DNA of 6,160 nucleotides from Candidatus Poribacteria bacterium (GTDB lineage Bacteria > Poribacteria > DTPJ01 > WJIO01), in NCBI GenBank assembly GCA_014730235.1, contig WJIO01000410.1, forward strand, positions 1-6,160. The letters are read 5' to 3'. Of this stretch, positions 949-6,160 are shown in pieces; the stretch's first letter is position 1; every line of letters begins with the position of its first letter. A program made the translations under genes and the position numbers. Below the pieces are notes generated by a model. It saw only the letters and a list, made by a program, of their open reading frames with translations. It did no database searches and was not told the origin of the DNA.

Positions 949-992
949 ACAATAGGGCAAATGTAAATGGCAAACAATTATAAAGAAACGCC

Positions 993-1012
993 ATGTCATA
1001 TTGTCATGACAT
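993..1012. repeat. Palindromic site at left part of repeat copy 1
   Basis: ATGTCAT (993-999) and its inverse ATGACAT (1006-1012) form a 7-base inverted repeat with a 6-base centre. Overlapping it, TGTCATGACA at 1002-1011 is a perfect 10-base palindrome. The same arrangement occurs in copy 2 at 6012-6030. The symmetry and conservation suggest a dimeric protein-binding site or a small hairpin; no known operator is recognised. Confidence 0.55.
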
Positions 1013-1107
1013 CACCTGTAAAGTCAATTACAGCAATGTTTTTAACTATGACAAAAATAATTTATCCTGAAATGTTATGTGTTATTTTGACACCTGCACA
1101 AATAGTC

Positions 1108-1155
1108 AGGGCGCAGATCGATCCAACCTGGAAAAACAGGGGGGATCCGCGCCCT
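1108..1155 (+). other. Conserved stem-loop in repeat copy 1
   Basis: A nested hairpin can be drawn by eye. The outer 7-bp stem is AGGGCGC (1108-1114) with GCGCCCT (1149-1155). An asymmetric internal loop follows, then a 5-bp stem GATCC (1120-1124) with GGATC (1143-1147), and an inner 4-bp stem CCTG (1127-1130) with CAGG (1137-1140) closing an A-rich loop. The outer and middle stems are fully kept in copy 2; the difference in G-run length falls between stems. No U-tract follows, so it does not look like an intrinsic terminator. It may be an RNA structure or a DNA hairpin recognised by a protein. Confidence 0.6.
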
Positions 1156-1184
1156 AAAATGGAGATCGGGAAAAAACTCTATAA

Positions 1185-1205
1185 AACCCTATGAATAAAA
1201 GGGTT
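1185..1205 (+). other. Small hairpin AACCCT/AGGGTT
   Basis: AACCCT (1185-1190) and its inverse AGGGTT (1200-1205) form a perfect 6-bp stem around a 9-base A-rich loop. It lies 30 bases after the conserved stem-loop. A short run of A's before it and no T-run after it mean it is not a + strand terminator. Function unknown; could be part of a folded leader RNA. Confidence 0.35.
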
Positions 1206-1315
1206 AAGGCCAACTTGAAAGGTTTGACGTGTCCGCAAAAACGATAGAAAAACAACTTTTTGACGCCCCGAAATCTTCGATCTGCGCCAGCCCTGATCTG
1301 GGCTTAATGATAATG

Positions 1316-1339
1316 CGGGTTTACAGAGACGGGGTTACA
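1316..1339. repeat. Imperfect tandem direct repeat, 14-base period
   Basis: CGGGTTTACA (1316-1325) and CGGGGTTACA (1330-1339) differ at one position and are spaced 14 bases apart. Two such units on about one and a half helical turns could be a paired binding site, but the repeat is short and chance is not excluded. Confidence 0.3.
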
Positions 1340-1445
1340 ATACATGCCCTGATTAAAATGGGATTGATACAAATTCGTTTTATCCTACTCATATCTTCCA
1401 CATTCTGCAAAATACAAATAATTCACAAATTTAAATAAAACTGAA

Positions 1446-1508: not shown

Positions 1509-1512
1509 GAGG
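1509..1512 (+). promoter_or_regulatory. Ribosome binding site for the large operon gene
   Basis: GAGG ends 8 bases before the ATG at 1521. This supports translation beginning at the N-terminal membrane region rather than at an internal Met nearer the RT domain, and so supports the fusion being real. Confidence 0.55.
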
Positions 1513-1520
1513 TTAGAATT

Positions 1521-4500
1521 ATGATTAACAGTTTCAGTAATAATAGACAGTGGAATTCTGCAACCTGGTCTGTTATAGCTCCAGGCCTGGGACAATGGGC
1601 AAACGGCCAGTATCGCATGGCGGCCGTATTCCTGTGCATACACTCATGCGCCACCGTATGGCTTTGGATTCCATTGATGGTTTCCGAAACCATGTCAAAA
1701 AACCAATGGCTTTTAGGATTTGGCGCACTGGCTTTATGGGCTTTAAGTGTTTTTGAAGCGCACATACGCAGCAATAACGCCTCCCCTCTGGCTCTTAGAC
1801 ATATATGGCTGGAAATCCCTTTTGTAGCCTTATTGTCAGTTATTGCAGCTCTGAATGTCAGAATTCCTGATCCAGTGATCAATGGTCAGGGAATCCAACC
1901 ATTGATCTATTCCATACCCATGGCCGCATCTGTTATCCTTGACCCCATAACAGGCAGTTTCATTGGTATTACGGCATCTGTCCTCCAATTCTTTCTTAAA
2001 TGGCAGCCACTTCCCATAACCATAGTGCGCTGCATGACAATACCAACAGCTTGTGGATTGGCATCCTTAGCAGGAATGAGGATTCCCGCCATTGCAGGTA
2101 TATCCCTGATTTTGCCCAGCATTGCGGAAATCCTTATCCTGGATGTCCAGATCAAGAAAGCTATGGCTTTTACTGAGCGTTTGGCAATATTCTGGGTATC
2201 CGCCTGGTTGATATCATTGCTGTTTGCAGAATTCAGAAGGCAGTTTAACAAGATTTCTCAATATGAAAGCCCTATATCCCAACGTCTTCATAATCCTCTT
2301 AACAAACTACCATCCCAGACAGAATCTTTATATAATCCCCAAAGACAAATTCAACAACAACCTGTAAAGCTAACCAGCAATCAGCGCCAGCGTTCCAATG
2401 ATATATGGGGCAGATTAGTTGATGAAAATAATCTCGTAATGGCCTGGGAGAAGGTGCAGGCCAATAATGGAGCGCCCGGAGTTGATGGGGTAAAGATAAG
2501 CGATTTTGCCACAAACGCGCATGAAAATATATCAACGTTGAGAACAATCATTGAAAACGGGCAATACCAGTCATCAATCCTTAAAAAATTTAGTATACCC
2601 AAAAGTTCCGGTTCTCTTCGATATTTGAGCATTCCTACTGTACGAGACAGGATTGTTCAACAAGCCCTCATGCAGGTTTTGGTGCCTGTTTTTGATCCCT
2701 TATTTCTGGAGTGCAGTTTTGCATATCGTCCCAGACGTTCAGCTCATCATGCTCTAAAGCGAGTAGATCAACATCTGAAAGAGGGATATGGCTGGATACT
2801 GGATGGAGATATTCAGTCATTCTTCGATACGGTCAGTCATGATGTGCTTTTATGCCTCATTCAGAAAAGAATTACAGATATGAGGATACTCAGTCTGATC
2901 AAAGAAACTTTGTCAGTCACGGAGCAGTCGGGTATAGGGATTCCCCAGGGAGCCGCTACATCAACTCTCTATTCCAATATCTACCTGCATGTTTTCGATA
3001 AATCCATGATGGATTCTGAGCAACTACTTACGCGATATGCTGATGATTTTGTGGCAGTATGCAAAACTCCTGAAGCGACGCAAGACGCTCTTAATACGGC
3101 CAGCCAGACTTTAACCAATCCTCTACGCTTAAACTTGAATAAGGAAAAGACCAGGATTTGCAGCATAGAGGATGGTTTTGTGTTTCTGGGCTATCAATTC
3201 GATAAATCCGGGCGTCGTCCTTCCGAAAGAGCAATTGGATCTCTCACGACTAAAGTCAGAGATAAGATGGATGAATCAAAGCAGCTTGGTGAATCAAGTG
3301 CCAGTGCCATGGAGCGTCTTCGCTCCAGTGTCCGCGGTTGGTGCAACTATTTTGAAGTAGATATTGATCACATATTGGGAAATAATGATGGCGTCCTTCC
3401 ATCTAAAGAAATCTCAGAACCTATCTTTAATAATCAGAGCATATCAGAACAGTTTTCCCATGAGCATCTGAATAAATTCATGGAGCTTTTCCAGGGCAAA
3501 CAAGGTGTATATGCCCATCAATGGGTAAATCAAACGGGAAAAAACGGTTACGTGCCTATGAAGCAACCGTTAACTCCAGATGCAGTCAACGCGCATCTGG
3601 CAGGCCAGGAGACTATCGCTTTATACTTAATGCGACAAGACAACACTGTTTATTTCTCGGTTATAGATATAGATACCAAAGACTCTGGAGCTGGCGGTAT
3701 TGAAGAAACGCATAAAGTCGCTCTGCGCATAAAAGAATTGGGATCTCGTAATGGTCTTTCTATATATATTGAGGACAGTGGTCGTAAAGGCCGTCATTGC
3801 TGGATGTTCTTCAGCGATCCTGTTACTGCAAGCAAATCCAGACAATTAGGTAAGTTATTAGTAGCAAAATCCAGCCCTATAGAAAAAGGAATTGCATGTG
3901 AAATATTCCCAAAACAAGAGCGTATTCATGGTAATGCACTGGGTTCTTTGATAAAATTGCCCTTGGGCATCCATCAGCAAACCCAACGGCGCTGTCTTTT
4001 CCTCAAAGATGACGGAAATCCGTTTTCAGATCAGGAAAACTACTTATTTCAGATAAGACGTATGTCTCCACAATCTGTCGAAGCTTCCATAAACAGCTTA
4101 TCCGGTAGAGAATCTAATAAATCAGATATCAATCCCAATGGAGATAATTGTGTCCAGAAGGCACTTCAGGGATGCAGCGTATTGAGATTTCTGGTAGGAA
4201 GAGCCCAGGAATTAAAGCACCTTAATCATAGCGAACGATTGGTTCTCCTTTATACTCTTGGCAAACTGGGTGAGGAAGGAAAGGAATACATTCACCAGGT
4301 TATGGGCTACTGCGATAACTACAATTCAAAGATAACCCAAAAGTGGATCAACCGTCTGGATCCGGAACACAATCCCATAAGCTGTGCGCGTATCAAAGAC
4401 TGGTTATTTGATATAATTCCTGCTGTTGGTTGCTCATGTACTGGAAATCTTTATGGTGGAAAATATCCATCACCAGTATTCTATGCCCAGGAAAGTATGG

Positions 4501-4664
4501 AAATATCCCATCAGCCTAATCTTCAATCGTCTGAAGATCAGTATCCGGATACTATTCCTGAAGATCCATCAGAAATTCAGGAGATGCCATGCCTGGACGA
4601 CATTTGGCGTGAGTTGGAGGACGATATCTTTTCCGTAGAAGAAGATACAATTGATGGAGGATAA
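1521..4664 (+). CDS. Membrane - reverse transcriptase - AEP primase fusion protein (CRISPR adaptation)
   Basis: One uninterrupted 1047-residue frame. Residues ~15-237 are hydrophobic with about seven or eight membrane segments; the start PGLGQWANGQ resembles TM2-type membrane proteins, and the basic FRRQFNK after the last segment predicts a cytoplasmic C-terminal part. Residues ~240-290 are a Gln/Asn/Pro-rich linker. Residues ~292-611 are a group II intron-like RT: LDGDIQSFFD (catalytic Asp430), GIPQG (473-477), YADD (506-509), FLGY (555-558) and a maturase-like RGWCNYF (605-611). Residues ~645-860 are an AEP primase-polymerase domain: DID (Asp716, Asp718), SGRKGRHCW (His759), EIFPKQ (Glu794), then IKLPLGIH. 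Residues ~876-975 look like a PriL-type Cys-containing helical domain, followed by an acidic tail. It is the first gene of an operon with cas1 and cas2. By family, RTs and CRISPR-associated primase-polymerases (CAPPs) beside cas1 act in spacer acquisition. The likely role is to synthesise or fill in prespacers, possibly from RNA, at the membrane (inference). All catalytic residues appear intact. Confidence 0.9.
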   Translation: MINSFSNNRQWNSATWSVIAPGLGQWANGQYRMAAVFLCIHSCATVWLWIPLMVSETMSKNQWLLGFGALALWALSVFEAHIRSNNASPLALRHIWLEIPFVALLSVIAALNVRIPDPVINGQGIQPLIYSIPMAASVILDPITGSFIGITASVLQFFLKWQPLPITIVRCMTIPTACGLASLAGMRIPAIAGISLILPSIAEILILDVQIKKAMAFTERLAIFWVSAWLISLLFAEFRRQFNKISQYESPISQRLHNPLNKLPSQTESLYNPQRQIQQQPVKLTSNQRQRSNDIWGRLVDENNLVMAWEKVQANNGAPGVDGVKISDFATNAHENISTLRTIIENGQYQSSILKKFSIPKSSGSLRYLSIPTVRDRIVQQALMQVLVPVFDPLFLECSFAYRPRRSAHHALKRVDQHLKEGYGWILDGDIQSFFDTVSHDVLLCLIQKRITDMRILSLIKETLSVTEQSGIGIPQGAATSTLYSNIYLHVFDKSMMDSEQLLTRYADDFVAVCKTPEATQDALNTASQTLTNPLRLNLNKEKTRICSIEDGFVFLGYQFDKSGRRPSERAIGSLTTKVRDKMDESKQLGESSASAMERLRSSVRGWCNYFEVDIDHILGNNDGVLPSKEISEPIFNNQSISEQFSHEHLNKFMELFQGKQGVYAHQWVNQTGKNGYVPMKQPLTPDAVNAHLAGQETIALYLMRQDNTVYFSVIDIDTKDSGAGGIEETHKVALRIKELGSRNGLSIYIEDSGRKGRHCWMFFSDPVTASKSRQLGKLLVAKSSPIEKGIACEIFPKQERIHGNALGSLIKLPLGIHQQTQRRCLFLKDDGNPFSDQENYLFQIRRMSPQSVEASINSLSGRESNKSDINPNGDNCVQKALQGCSVLRFLVGRAQELKHLNHSERLVLLYTLGKLGEEGKEYIHQVMGYCDNYNSKITQKWINRLDPEHNPISCARIKDWLFDIIPAVGCSCTGNLYGGKYPSPVFYAQESMEISHQPNLQSSEDQYPDTIPEDPSEIQEMPCLDDIWRELEDDIFSVEEDTIDGG
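4656..4660 (+). promoter_or_regulatory. Ribosome binding site of cas1, inside the upstream gene's end
   Basis: GGAGG lies within the last codons of the RT-primase gene and ends 7 bases before the cas1 ATG. Two stop codons in a row (TAATAA, 4662-4667) directly abut the ATG. The arrangement indicates translational coupling and co-expression of the two proteins. Confidence 0.75.
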
Positions 4665-4667
4665 TAA

Positions 4668-5663
4668 ATGTCTGTGGTATATGTAACTGAACAAGGAGCA
4701 TCTGTCCGCAAAACCAGCAAAAGAATTTTGATTATGAAGGATGGAAAACCCCTTCAGGTCATAAGACTGCACGAACTGGAAAAGCTTGTTTTGTTTGGCA
4801 ATATCCAGTTAACCACTCAAGCCATGACTGCCCTCTTAAACGAAGGCATCGAGGTAAGCTTTTTATCCTCAAAAGGTAAGTTTAGGGGAAGACTATCCCC
4901 CTTGGAATCAAAGAATATACCCCTGAGAATCTCTCAATATAAGCGATATAACGATATGAATTTCAGGCTATCAATAGCTCATCGCATTGTGGAGAGAAAG
5001 ATTAGAAATGGGCGTTCTCTTATCATGAGGTACAAACGTACACATTCTGAGGTTAATCTTGATACTGAAATTCAGCACCTTGATTCTATGATGGGTAAAG
5101 TCTCAGACCAGAATACCATACCGTCACTTATGGGAGTTGAAGGTGAGTCGGCAGCCACGTATTTCCGGGCTTATGGTCGAATGTTTCTGAAAGATTTACA
5201 GTTTTCATCCCGCTCGCGTCGTCCTCCAGGAGATCCAGCCAATGCTTTACTCAGTCTGGGGTATGCCCTTTTGACGAATGAAGCTCTCGGCATTCTGGCA
5301 GCTCAGGGTTTGGATATCCATATTGGATTCCTTCATGAGATACACTACGGCAGGCCTTCCCTTGCTTTGGACATGGTAGAAGAATTCAGGCAGCCTGTGG
5401 TAGACAGATTTGTTCTAAGCTTAGCCAATAGGTTAGTATTTACCGTAGAGAATTTCGATGATAATGGTGATAAAGGAGTTCTCTTAAACAAGGATTCATT
5501 TAAACGCTATCTGGCCCTTTATGATCGAATGATGAATGTAAGTTTTAAGGACAAAGAGTCAGACCGGAATGTGAGTTTTCGGTCTCTATTAAGTCGTCAA
5601 GCCCAGCGTATTGCGAAGTGTATACTGGAAGAAGAAGAATATAAACCTTTTATTATGAGGTAA
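4668..5663 (+). CDS. cas1: Cas1, CRISPR adaptation integrase
   Basis: The 331-residue product has the usual Cas1 length and layout: a small beta-rich N-terminal domain (1 to ~80) and a helical catalytic domain. The metal-binding residues are visible in their family motifs: Glu158 in LMGVEGESAATYF, His223 in GFLHEIHYGRPSLALD, and Asp235 with Glu238/Glu239 in ALDMVEEFR. The conserved RSRRPPGDPANALLSLGYA stretch (182-200) is present. Cas1 forms the integrase complex with Cas2 that inserts prespacers at the leader-proximal CRISPR repeat. The start is fixed by a strong GGAGG 7 bases upstream. Unlike RT-Cas1 fusions, this Cas1 is a separate polypeptide: the RT is carried by the preceding protein, 3 bases upstream. 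The long Lys/Arg-rich helical stretch (90-125) is typical. No missing key residue was noticed. The sequence style fits Cas1 of type III- or I-linked modules, but a subtype cannot be assigned without an array or effector. Confidence 0.97.
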   Translation: MSVVYVTEQGASVRKTSKRILIMKDGKPLQVIRLHELEKLVLFGNIQLTTQAMTALLNEGIEVSFLSSKGKFRGRLSPLESKNIPLRISQYKRYNDMNFRLSIAHRIVERKIRNGRSLIMRYKRTHSEVNLDTEIQHLDSMMGKVSDQNTIPSLMGVEGESAATYFRAYGRMFLKDLQFSSRSRRPPGDPANALLSLGYALLTNEALGILAAQGLDIHIGFLHEIHYGRPSLALDMVEEFRQPVVDRFVLSLANRLVFTVENFDDNGDKGVLLNKDSFKRYLALYDRMMNVSFKDKESDRNVSFRSLLSRQAQRIAKCILEEEEYKPFIMR

Positions 5664-5673
5664 GAGAATTCTC

Positions 5674-5952
5674 ATGCAATATGTAATCTGTTATGATATA
5701 ACCGATGATAAGCGAAGGAATAACGTTGCCAAAATCTTGTTGGATTATGGTCACCGCGTCCAATACAGCGTATTTGAATGTGAAATCACAAAAAAAGTTC
5801 TTGACACGCTGATCCAAAGCATTGTAGAATGCATTGACTTCGATAAAGATAGTGTAGTTGTCTATTCTTTATGTTCTAGATGTGTGGACTTGGTCAGAAC
5901 TTTAGGGTTCCAACGACTTAAAAAATCACTATCTGCTGCATTGGTTGTGTAA
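5674..5952 (+). CDS. cas2: Cas2, CRISPR adaptation protein
   Basis: The 92-residue product matches Cas2 along its whole length: a ferredoxin-like first strand YVICYDITDDKRR with the conserved Asp8, the VAKILLDYGHRVQYSVFEC helix-strand stretch (18-36), and VVVYSLCSRC (61-70), equivalent to the IYPLC..C strand of the family. Cas2 dimers bridge two Cas1 dimers and measure prespacer length; nuclease activity is not needed for that. The ATG at 5674 lies 10 bases after the cas1 stop. GAGG (5657-5660) or the closer AAGAG (5662-5666) may serve as ribosome site. No fused DEDDh nuclease or other extra domain is present. It is the last operon gene seen; no clear intrinsic terminator follows, and the gap to repeat copy 2 is 32 bases. 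Confidence 0.96.
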   Translation: MQYVICYDITDDKRRNNVAKILLDYGHRVQYSVFECEITKKVLDTLIQSIVECIDFDKDSVVVYSLCSRCVDLVRTLGFQRLKKSLSAALVV

Positions 5953-6011: not shown

Positions 6012-6030
6012 ATGTCATACTGTCATGACA
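6012..6030. repeat. Palindromic site in repeat copy 2
   Basis: ATGTCAT (6012-6018) is followed by the perfect 10-base palindrome TGTCATGACA (6021-6030), matching the site at 993-1012 with one base changed in the centre (attg to actg) and the outermost base of the right arm lost. Conservation here, while the following ~50 bases have drifted, suggests the site is functional. Confidence 0.5.
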
Positions 6031-6105
6031 ACATCCATGGAGCCAGTAATTTCAAGGATTTTAGCTATGACACTGCGCGTTATGCTGACATTTGCGCAAA
6101 TAGTC

Positions 6106-6157
6106 AGGGCGCAGATCGATCCAACCTTGAAAAACAGGGGGGGGGGATCCGCGCCCT
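6106..6157 (+). other. Conserved stem-loop in repeat copy 2
   Basis: The same nested fold as at 1108-1155: outer stem AGGGCGC (6106-6112) with GCGCCCT (6151-6157), middle stem GATCC (6118-6122) with GGATC (6145-6149), and an inner hairpin CCTTG/CAGGG that closes with a G-T wobble. The one base change in the inner stem (G to T) shifts the pairing but still permits a stem. The four extra G's sit in an unpaired segment. Confidence 0.6.
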
Positions 6158-6160
6158 AAA

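What the first reader, a model, noticed from the sequence alone, without database searches (positions are those of the whole stretch)
1521..2240. Polytopic membrane region fused to the N-terminus of an RT-primase in a cas1-cas2 operon
About 240 residues with seven or eight hydrophobic segments precede the RT in one unbroken frame, starting at an ATG with a well-placed GAGG. RTs and primase-polymerases of CRISPR adaptation modules are normally treated as soluble proteins. A membrane anchor would place spacer acquisition at the inner membrane, where phage nucleic acid enters, or could make the protein a sensor. The basic residues after the last segment predict that the enzymatic part is cytoplasmic. 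I do not recall a described RT-CAPP protein with such a region.
Basis: partly seen in the sequence, partly recalled or inferred. Interest (0 to 1): 0.9.

Follow-up and report, generated by a model that had tools for sequence, protein, structure and literature searches.

The report
Membrane-anchored CRISPR reverse transcriptase-primase
A bacterial enzyme thought to copy invader RNA or DNA into CRISPR memory carries, in one unbroken gene, a multi-pass membrane domain that none of the sixteen full-length relatives examined has, suggesting that in this bacterium immune memory is made at the cell membrane.

Summary
ORF 1521-4664 (1047 aa) runs from ATG 1521 (GAGG at 1509-1512) through a hydrophobic N-terminus (seven segments in residues 1-240; shuffles average 0.6), a disordered linker, a group-II-like RT and a CRISPR-associated primase-polymerase (CAPP), followed by cas1 and cas2. 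No in-frame ATG/GTG/TTG lies between residues 234 and 306, so the RT-CAPP cannot be translated alone; two separate genes are excluded unless the assembly is wrong. The polymerases are an ordinary RT-CAPP (CART-CAPP). The membrane part is not: none of 16 full-length RT-CAPPs with a complete N-terminus has one, including the only other one among 84 genomes of the phylum. The same protein lacks the ~170-residue, TPR-containing spacer between RT and CAPP that all 13 aligned homologues have. The membrane domain is a singleton; only its first ~70 residues weakly resemble a common membrane motif (DUF5683-like). The likeliest mechanism is a tether that places prespacer synthesis at the inner membrane, with the sensor idea less likely; neither is shown. 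The cytoplasmic-side prediction from basic residues is weak. The cassette is flanked by copies of a CRISPR leader with a solo repeat, linking it by sequence to a type III-C system. New variant of a known kind.

The parts
981..1332 (+). CRISPR leader (copy 1), upstream of the fusion gene
   Evidence: 96% identical over 391 bp to the leader that precedes a real repeat-spacer-repeat on contig C388 of the same genome
1333..1371 (+). Solo degenerate CRISPR repeat in sense orientation, 149 bp before the fusion ATG
   Evidence: 34 of 39 positions match the C388 repeat GGTTACAACATATGCCCTGATGGAAATGGGATTGAAACA; a possible decayed second repeat follows at about 1410-1448 (22/39, 1 of 1000 shuffles as good)
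1509..1512 (+). GAGG Shine-Dalgarno-like site, 8 nt before the ATG
   Evidence: read directly from the sequence
1521..2240 (+). Polytopic membrane domain, residues 1-240, 7-8 hydrophobic segments
   Evidence: hydropathy against shuffles, codon signal, helical but low-confidence models
2241..2384 (+). Gln/Asn-rich linker, residues 241-288, probably disordered, without any in-frame start codon
2385..3365 (+). Group-II-intron-type RT domain (residues 289-615) with motif A D430 and YADD D508/D509
   Evidence: TIGR04416 307 bits, RVT_1 E 2.9e-31; model matches 6ar1 (E 1.9e-24); catalytic residues invariant in 14 aligned sequences
3459..4520 (+). CAPP (AEP primase-polymerase plus PriCT-like C-terminal region with conserved Cys), residues 647-1000; DxD D716/D718 and H759
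   Evidence: NF040561 315 bits against a cut-off of 200; model matches MpCAPP 7nqd (TMt 0.92); residues invariant
4668..5663 (+). cas1
   Evidence: PF01867 E 1.2e-92, TIGR00287 286 bits
5674..5952 (+). cas2
   Evidence: PF09827 E 1.2e-24
6012..6160 (+). CRISPR leader (copy 2), cut by the contig end
   Evidence: 88-91% identical to copy 1 over its 3' half, with deletions

Best explanation
This is a CART-CAPP adaptation polymerase of a type III-C CRISPR system in which an N-terminal multi-pass membrane domain has been fused to the RT and the TPR-containing spacer between RT and CAPP has been lost. The membrane domain most likely acts as a tether: it holds the RT-primase, and through it the Cas1-Cas2 made from the same operon, at the cytoplasmic face of the inner membrane. 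There the RT primes DNA on invader RNA or single-stranded DNA and hands the product to Cas1-Cas2 for integration. Shown here: the single frame, the obligate fusion, intact RT and primase motifs, the operon, the absence of the membrane domain in homologues, and the loss of the spacer. Inferred: membrane insertion, topology, physical coupling to Cas1-Cas2, and the place of acquisition.
For: Single 1047-aa frame with no internal start codon between residues 234 and 306. Seven hydrophobic segments against 0.6 in shuffles, and codon choice like the neighbouring genes. RT and CAPP catalytic residues invariant and folds recovered with pLDDT about 90, so the enzyme part is under selection. cas1 starts 3 bp after the fusion and cas2 10 bp after cas1. 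Published CART-CAPP RTs prime DNA on RNA and DNA templates (PMC10415136). TPR-spacer loss coincides with gain of the membrane domain: 36 residues against 135-224 in 13 homologues. The linker is disordered, as a tether would be. C357, C388 and C220 share the leader, so the cassette belongs to this genome and to its III-C system.
Against: Only one sequence has the fusion, so conservation of the membrane part cannot be tested. Charge bias does not fix the topology. The model of the membrane part is poor (pLDDT 46). No read data exclude a chimeric contig. The domain could be neutral, recently acquired or regulatory. Contig linkage to cas10c is by leader identity, not by a joined sequence.
Confidence: 0.5

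Rival explanations
1. The membrane domain is a sensor or switch: it detects phage entry, membrane damage or a ligand and gates RT-primase activity, as N-terminal membrane domains do in many signalling enzymes.
For: Polytopic N-terminal domain joined by a linker to a cytoplasmic enzyme, the usual shape of a membrane receptor. Type III loci often carry membrane signalling proteins, and one RT-CAPP locus has a TM-SAVED gene just upstream (L060).
Against: No ligand-binding or signalling family matches: no CARF, SAVED or sensor domain. The linker is disordered rather than a coiled coil or HAMP-like transmitter. No GGDD motif was found in the linked Cas10c, so cyclic oligoadenylate signalling is not expected in this system.
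Confidence: 0.17
2. The membrane domain replaces the lost TPR spacer as an oligomerisation or docking platform; membrane location is a by-product.
For: The TPR-containing spacer, present in all aligned homologues, is missing exactly in the protein with the membrane domain; MpCAPP self-associates and its authors note that TPR domains often promote this (PMC8211822).
Against: The characterised CaCART-CAPP places its Prim-Pol domain directly after the RT (PMC10415136), so a compact RT-CAPP needs no substitute. Coincidence in a single sequence is weak evidence.
Confidence: 0.13
3. Artefact: a chimeric contig or local misassembly joined a membrane gene to an RT-CAPP gene in frame.
For: Singleton; fragmented assembly of 451 contigs; no close relative held; no reads available.
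Against: No repeat at the junction that would mislead an assembler. The frame is kept. There is no stop, ribosome site or start for a separate RT-CAPP. Composition changes little (GC 45.8% then 43.7%). The flanking leaders belong to the same genome.
Confidence: 0.1
4. A recent, functionally inert fusion: an upstream membrane gene lost its stop and was joined to the RT-CAPP gene without consequence.
For: No homologue, no conservation data. One RT-CAPP locus has a small separate 2-TM gene between its array and the RT-CAPP gene (L053 874-1248), showing that membrane genes can sit exactly there.
Against: The RT-CAPP start codon is gone, so the cell depends on the fusion for any RT-CAPP. The membrane frame shows the codon choice of a settled gene.
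Confidence: 0.1

Closest known systems
CART-CAPP / CAPP_A RT type (e.g. Caloramator australicus CCJ33120; PMC8211822, PMC10415136)
   Same: RT of group-II type fused to CAPP with PriCT-like end, next to cas1 and cas2, type III association
   Different: 240-residue polytopic membrane domain and a ~48-residue linker before the RT; the homologues examined and the published enzymes begin at or near the RT
TPR-containing RT-CAPPs (L051, L043/L052, L055 and others)
   Same: 37-47% identical RT and CAPP, same operon
   Different: Window protein lacks the ~170-residue TPR-containing spacer and the conserved C-terminal coiled-coil tail
DUF5683-like (PGLGQxxNGQ) membrane modules
   Same: Residues 12-71 carry the motif SVIAPGLGQWANGQYRMAAVF; a similar stretch precedes a signal-peptidase-like protein (L092) and occurs in L004
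   Different: Match is below Pfam's cut-off (E 0.011) and covers only the first hairpin; the rest has no relative
Membrane proteins linked to CRISPR adaptation modules (FLSHclust survey, PMC10910872)
   Same: Membrane proteins near cas1-cas2
   Different: Reported there as linked proteins; the passages read name no fusion to the RT-primase
TM-CARF / TM-SAVED effectors of type III systems
   Same: Membrane protein in a type III CRISPR context
   Different: No CARF or SAVED domain; polymerase instead of nucleotide sensor

Membership tests
CART-CAPP (RT-CAPP) | RT domain of CRISPR/group-II type with intact YADD and motif A aspartate | tested here: met
   TIGR04416 and RVT_1 hits; D430, D508, D509 invariant
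CART-CAPP (RT-CAPP) | CAPP Prim-Pol domain over the family cut-off, with DxD and conserved His | tested here: met
   NF040561 315.5 bits, cut-off 200; D716, D718, H759 invariant; MpCAPP fold
CART-CAPP (RT-CAPP) | adjacent cas1 and cas2 | tested here: met
CART-CAPP (RT-CAPP) | RT at the N-terminus of the protein | tested here: not met
   294 residues precede the RT block, against 3-74 in 13 aligned homologues; so it is a variant architecture rather than a standard member
CART-CAPP (RT-CAPP) | DNA priming activity on RNA and DNA templates | not testable with these tools
   needs purified protein
Type III-C CRISPR-Cas | Cas10c plus Cmr-type subunits in the genome | tested here: met
   Cas10c E 5.7e-135, Cmr1, Cmr6, Cmr3, Cmr4, Cmr5 and Cas6 on contigs C220 and C388
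Type III-C CRISPR-Cas | physical linkage of the window's cassette to these genes | tested here: inconclusive
   shared leader and contig ends inside it, but no contig joins them
DUF5683 (PF18935) | match above the gathering score | tested here: not met
   16.2 bits against 26.7, residues 12-47 only
ECF transporter S component (PF07155) | match above the gathering score | tested here: not met
   11.5 bits against 26.7, E 0.31
TM-CARF / TM-SAVED effectors | CARF or SAVED domain | tested here: not met
   none among Pfam and NCBIfam hits or the 25 best PADLOC hits of the full protein; no PADLOC hit at all for residues 1-250
Integral membrane protein | several hydrophobic spans beyond chance | tested here: met
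   7 spans against mean 0.6, maximum 3 of 1000 shuffles
Integral membrane protein | location in the membrane, C-terminus inside | not testable with these tools
   charge bias ambiguous; needs fractionation and reporters

The most novel reading that the evidence does not exclude
A CRISPR adaptation polymerase that is an integral membrane protein: the RT-primase, and with it Cas1-Cas2, is anchored at the inner membrane so that prespacers are copied from phage nucleic acid where it enters, making spacer acquisition a membrane-located process.
Probability: 0.4. Interest if true: 0.82.

Novelty: new variant of a known kind. Interest (0 to 1): 0.62.

Why it matters
Where in the cell new CRISPR spacers are made is an open question. 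Adaptation enzymes are studied as soluble proteins. A natural fusion that cannot be translated without its membrane domain makes the question directly testable: cut the domain off, or move it, and see whether acquisition or the source of spacers changes. It would also give a natural precedent for tethering a spacer-acquisition polymerase.

Tried and rejected
Two separate genes joined by misreading: rejected, no in-frame start between residues 234 and 306. Chance hydrophobicity of a random frame: rejected. Known membrane family for residues 1-240: Pfam, NCBIfam, PHROGs, PADLOC, PDB sequences, phages, plasmids and viral contigs gave nothing above cut-off. Own genome and up to 386 other genomes gave only chance-level matches, apart from a recurrent PGLGQ hairpin. 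ECF S component and DUF5683: below cut-off. Other RT-CAPPs with a membrane N-terminus: none in 31 loci from the genome collection or in two whole-genome surveys of 386 genomes each. Fold of the membrane part: single-sequence model too poor to compare, so it was not searched. First reading of the 400-bp repeated element as a mobile element: rejected, it is a CRISPR leader with a repeat. Spacer match in viral contigs: none.

Full report
What is in the sequence. The window is a whole contig (G000:C357, 6160 bases) of a 5.5-Mb, 451-contig genome. On the + strand it holds the end of a TPR protein (3-878), an unannotated stretch, then a tight operon: 1521-4664 (1047 aa), cas1 4668-5663, cas2 5674-5952. 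The 1047-aa protein has an RT (Pfam RVT_1, residues 359-560; TIGR04416, 303-613) and a CRISPR-associated primase-polymerase (NF040561, 631-997, 315 bits against a cut-off of 200; AEP-TOTE 649-854). The model built with 13 homologues gives pLDDT around 90 for most of both domains. Its best solved matches are the GsI-IIC group II RT (6ar1) and the CAPP Prim-Pol domain of Marinitoga (7nqd, TM-score 0.92 by target length). Catalytic residues D430, D508, D509, D716, D718 and H759 are invariant in the alignment.

The membrane region is real in the sequence. Residues 1-240 hold seven hydrophobic 19-mers above 1.4 on the Kyte-Doolittle scale, against a mean of 0.6 and a maximum of 3 in 1000 shuffles; only 23 of 240 residues are charged. 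The frame is open over 240 codons where about 15 stops are expected, and its codon choice fits the downstream genes better than all 1000 synonymous recodings. The start is ATG 1521 with GAGG at 1509-1512. Both structure models are helical there but of low confidence. The exact number of spans, 7 or 8, and the topology are not settled. A cytoplasmic RT and primase are expected because dNTPs, RNA and Cas1-Cas2 are there; that is inference.

The fusion is obligate. Between TTG at residue 233 and ATG at residue 307, which is already inside the conserved RT, there is no in-frame ATG, GTG or TTG. An RT-CAPP of normal length could not be started there. The linker, residues 241-292, is rich in Gln, Asn, Pro and Ser and has pLDDT near 30. 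No repeat at the junction suggests a misassembly and base composition changes little, but without reads a chimera cannot be excluded.

Homologues lack it. A scan of one genome per species for conserved CAPP motifs gave 31 loci. Whole-genome searches gave two further loci read in full (G016, G242; G169 is the same contig as L052). The tables list 16 different RT-CAPP proteins with a complete N-terminus, besides reading frames broken inside the RT and one with the reverse order. All of the 16 begin 0 to about 70 residues before the RT, most within 10, and none has a hydrophobic N-terminus. In the 13 aligned, 3-74 residues precede the RT block, against 294 in the window. In the window's own phylum (84 genomes) only one other genome has a CAPP over the cut-off (G016), and it has no membrane part. 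The nearest relative is L051 (47% identical over RT plus CAPP); the deeper placement of the window is unresolved. The scan patterns were strict, so distant RT-CAPPs will have been missed.

A second difference came out of the alignment. All 13 aligned homologues have 135-224 residues between RT and CAPP, in at least one case clearly TPR repeats by eye; the window protein has 36. It also lacks the conserved C-terminal coiled-coil tail. So the protein has gained a membrane domain and lost its TPR-containing spacer. The characterised Caloramator enzyme also has its Prim-Pol directly after the RT (PMC10415136), so a short spacer alone is not unusual.

Origin of the membrane domain. No library, genome, phage or plasmid search found a relative above cut-off. 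The only recurring weak signal is the first hairpin, SVIAPGLGQWANGQYRMAAVF. It matches DUF5683 below its cut-off (E 0.011) and resembles N-terminal membrane modules such as the one before a signal-peptidase-like protein in L092 (30% over residues 9-71, E 0.002). This fits a domain recruited from a common stock of membrane modules, but it is not a family assignment.

Surroundings. The window's 981-1371 is a CRISPR leader plus one degenerate repeat: contig C388 of the same genome has cmr4-cmr5-cmr3-cas6, then the same leader (96%), then repeat-spacer-repeat at the contig end. A second leader copy begins after cas2 and runs off the contig. Contig C220 starts inside the same leader, has one degenerate repeat, and continues with cmr1-cmr6-cas10c. 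The simplest order is leader-repeat-fusion-cas1-cas2-leader-repeat-cmr1-cmr6-cas10c-...-cas6-leader-array, a type III-C system. The joins are inferred from shared leaders. The Cas10c frame has an HD motif and no GGDD motif, so cyclic nucleotide signalling is not expected.

How it most likely works. Published work shows that CART-CAPP RT domains prime and extend DNA on RNA and DNA templates, and that Cas1-Cas2 integrates such products in the Marinomonas system (PMC10415136); CAPPs are implicated in adaptation (PMC8211822). With the same enzymatic parts intact and the same operon, the added domain most simply tethers prespacer synthesis to the inner membrane. I give this 0.5. A sensor role (0.17), an oligomerisation role replacing the TPR (0.13), an artefact (0.10) and an inert fusion (0.10) remain. 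A hint that membrane proteins can belong with RT-CAPP comes from L053, where a separate 124-aa two-helix protein gene lies between the array and the RT-CAPP gene, and from L060, where a TM-SAVED gene lies just upstream of RT-CAPP. These are different proteins and may be unrelated effectors.

Novelty. The enzymatic part is a new member of a known kind. The membrane-RT-CAPP architecture was not found in the papers read (PMC8211822, PMC10415136, PMC5541045, PMC5513706, PMC12669027, PMC10910872); the last reports membrane proteins linked to adaptation modules, and the passages read name no fusion of this kind. I file it as a new variant of a known kind. Interest is held at 0.62 because it is a single sequence without proof of membrane location or of conservation.

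Noticed in passing
window 981-1371 and 6012-6160; L082 1-154; L083 1-460: Three copies of one ~350-bp CRISPR leader in the genome; two are followed by a single degenerate repeat (sense orientation) and then a cas operon, one by a real array. The RT-CAPP-cas1-cas2 cassette is thus flanked by direct leader repeats, which could serve as promoters or allow excision by recombination.
   Followed up: partly
window 1333-1371; L053 1293-1329; L056 1394-1430; L082 116-154: Solo degenerate CRISPR repeats in sense orientation about 0.1-0.2 kb upstream of the RT-CAPP gene in three unrelated loci with different repeats, and before cmr1. They may be array remnants, or a Cas6-cleavable or CreR-like element in the 5' region of cas operons.
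   Followed up: partly
window 3365-3459 (residues 615-647 of the fusion): The TPR-containing spacer between RT and CAPP, present in all 13 aligned homologues, is missing, as is the conserved C-terminal coiled-coil tail.
   Followed up: yes
L053 874-1248: A 124-aa two-helix membrane protein gene between the CRISPR array and the RT-CAPP gene; no Pfam match.
   Followed up: partly
L060 2352-3482: A TM-SAVED gene directly upstream of RT-CAPP in Candidatus Acididesulfobacter diazotrophicus.
   Followed up: no
L076 1890-7034: A 1714-aa frame with the order reversed (CAPP-like primase first, RT at about 416-662) plus later hydrophobic segments; possibly a UG10-type defence RT.
   Followed up: no
L089, L090, L091 6001-6561: CAPP-like primase stretches in three IMG/VR viral contigs (32% identical).
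   Followed up: no
L054 3594-4334 and 4436-6439: In a Methanophagales archaeon the RT-CAPP reading frame is split into two frames inside the RT.
   Followed up: no
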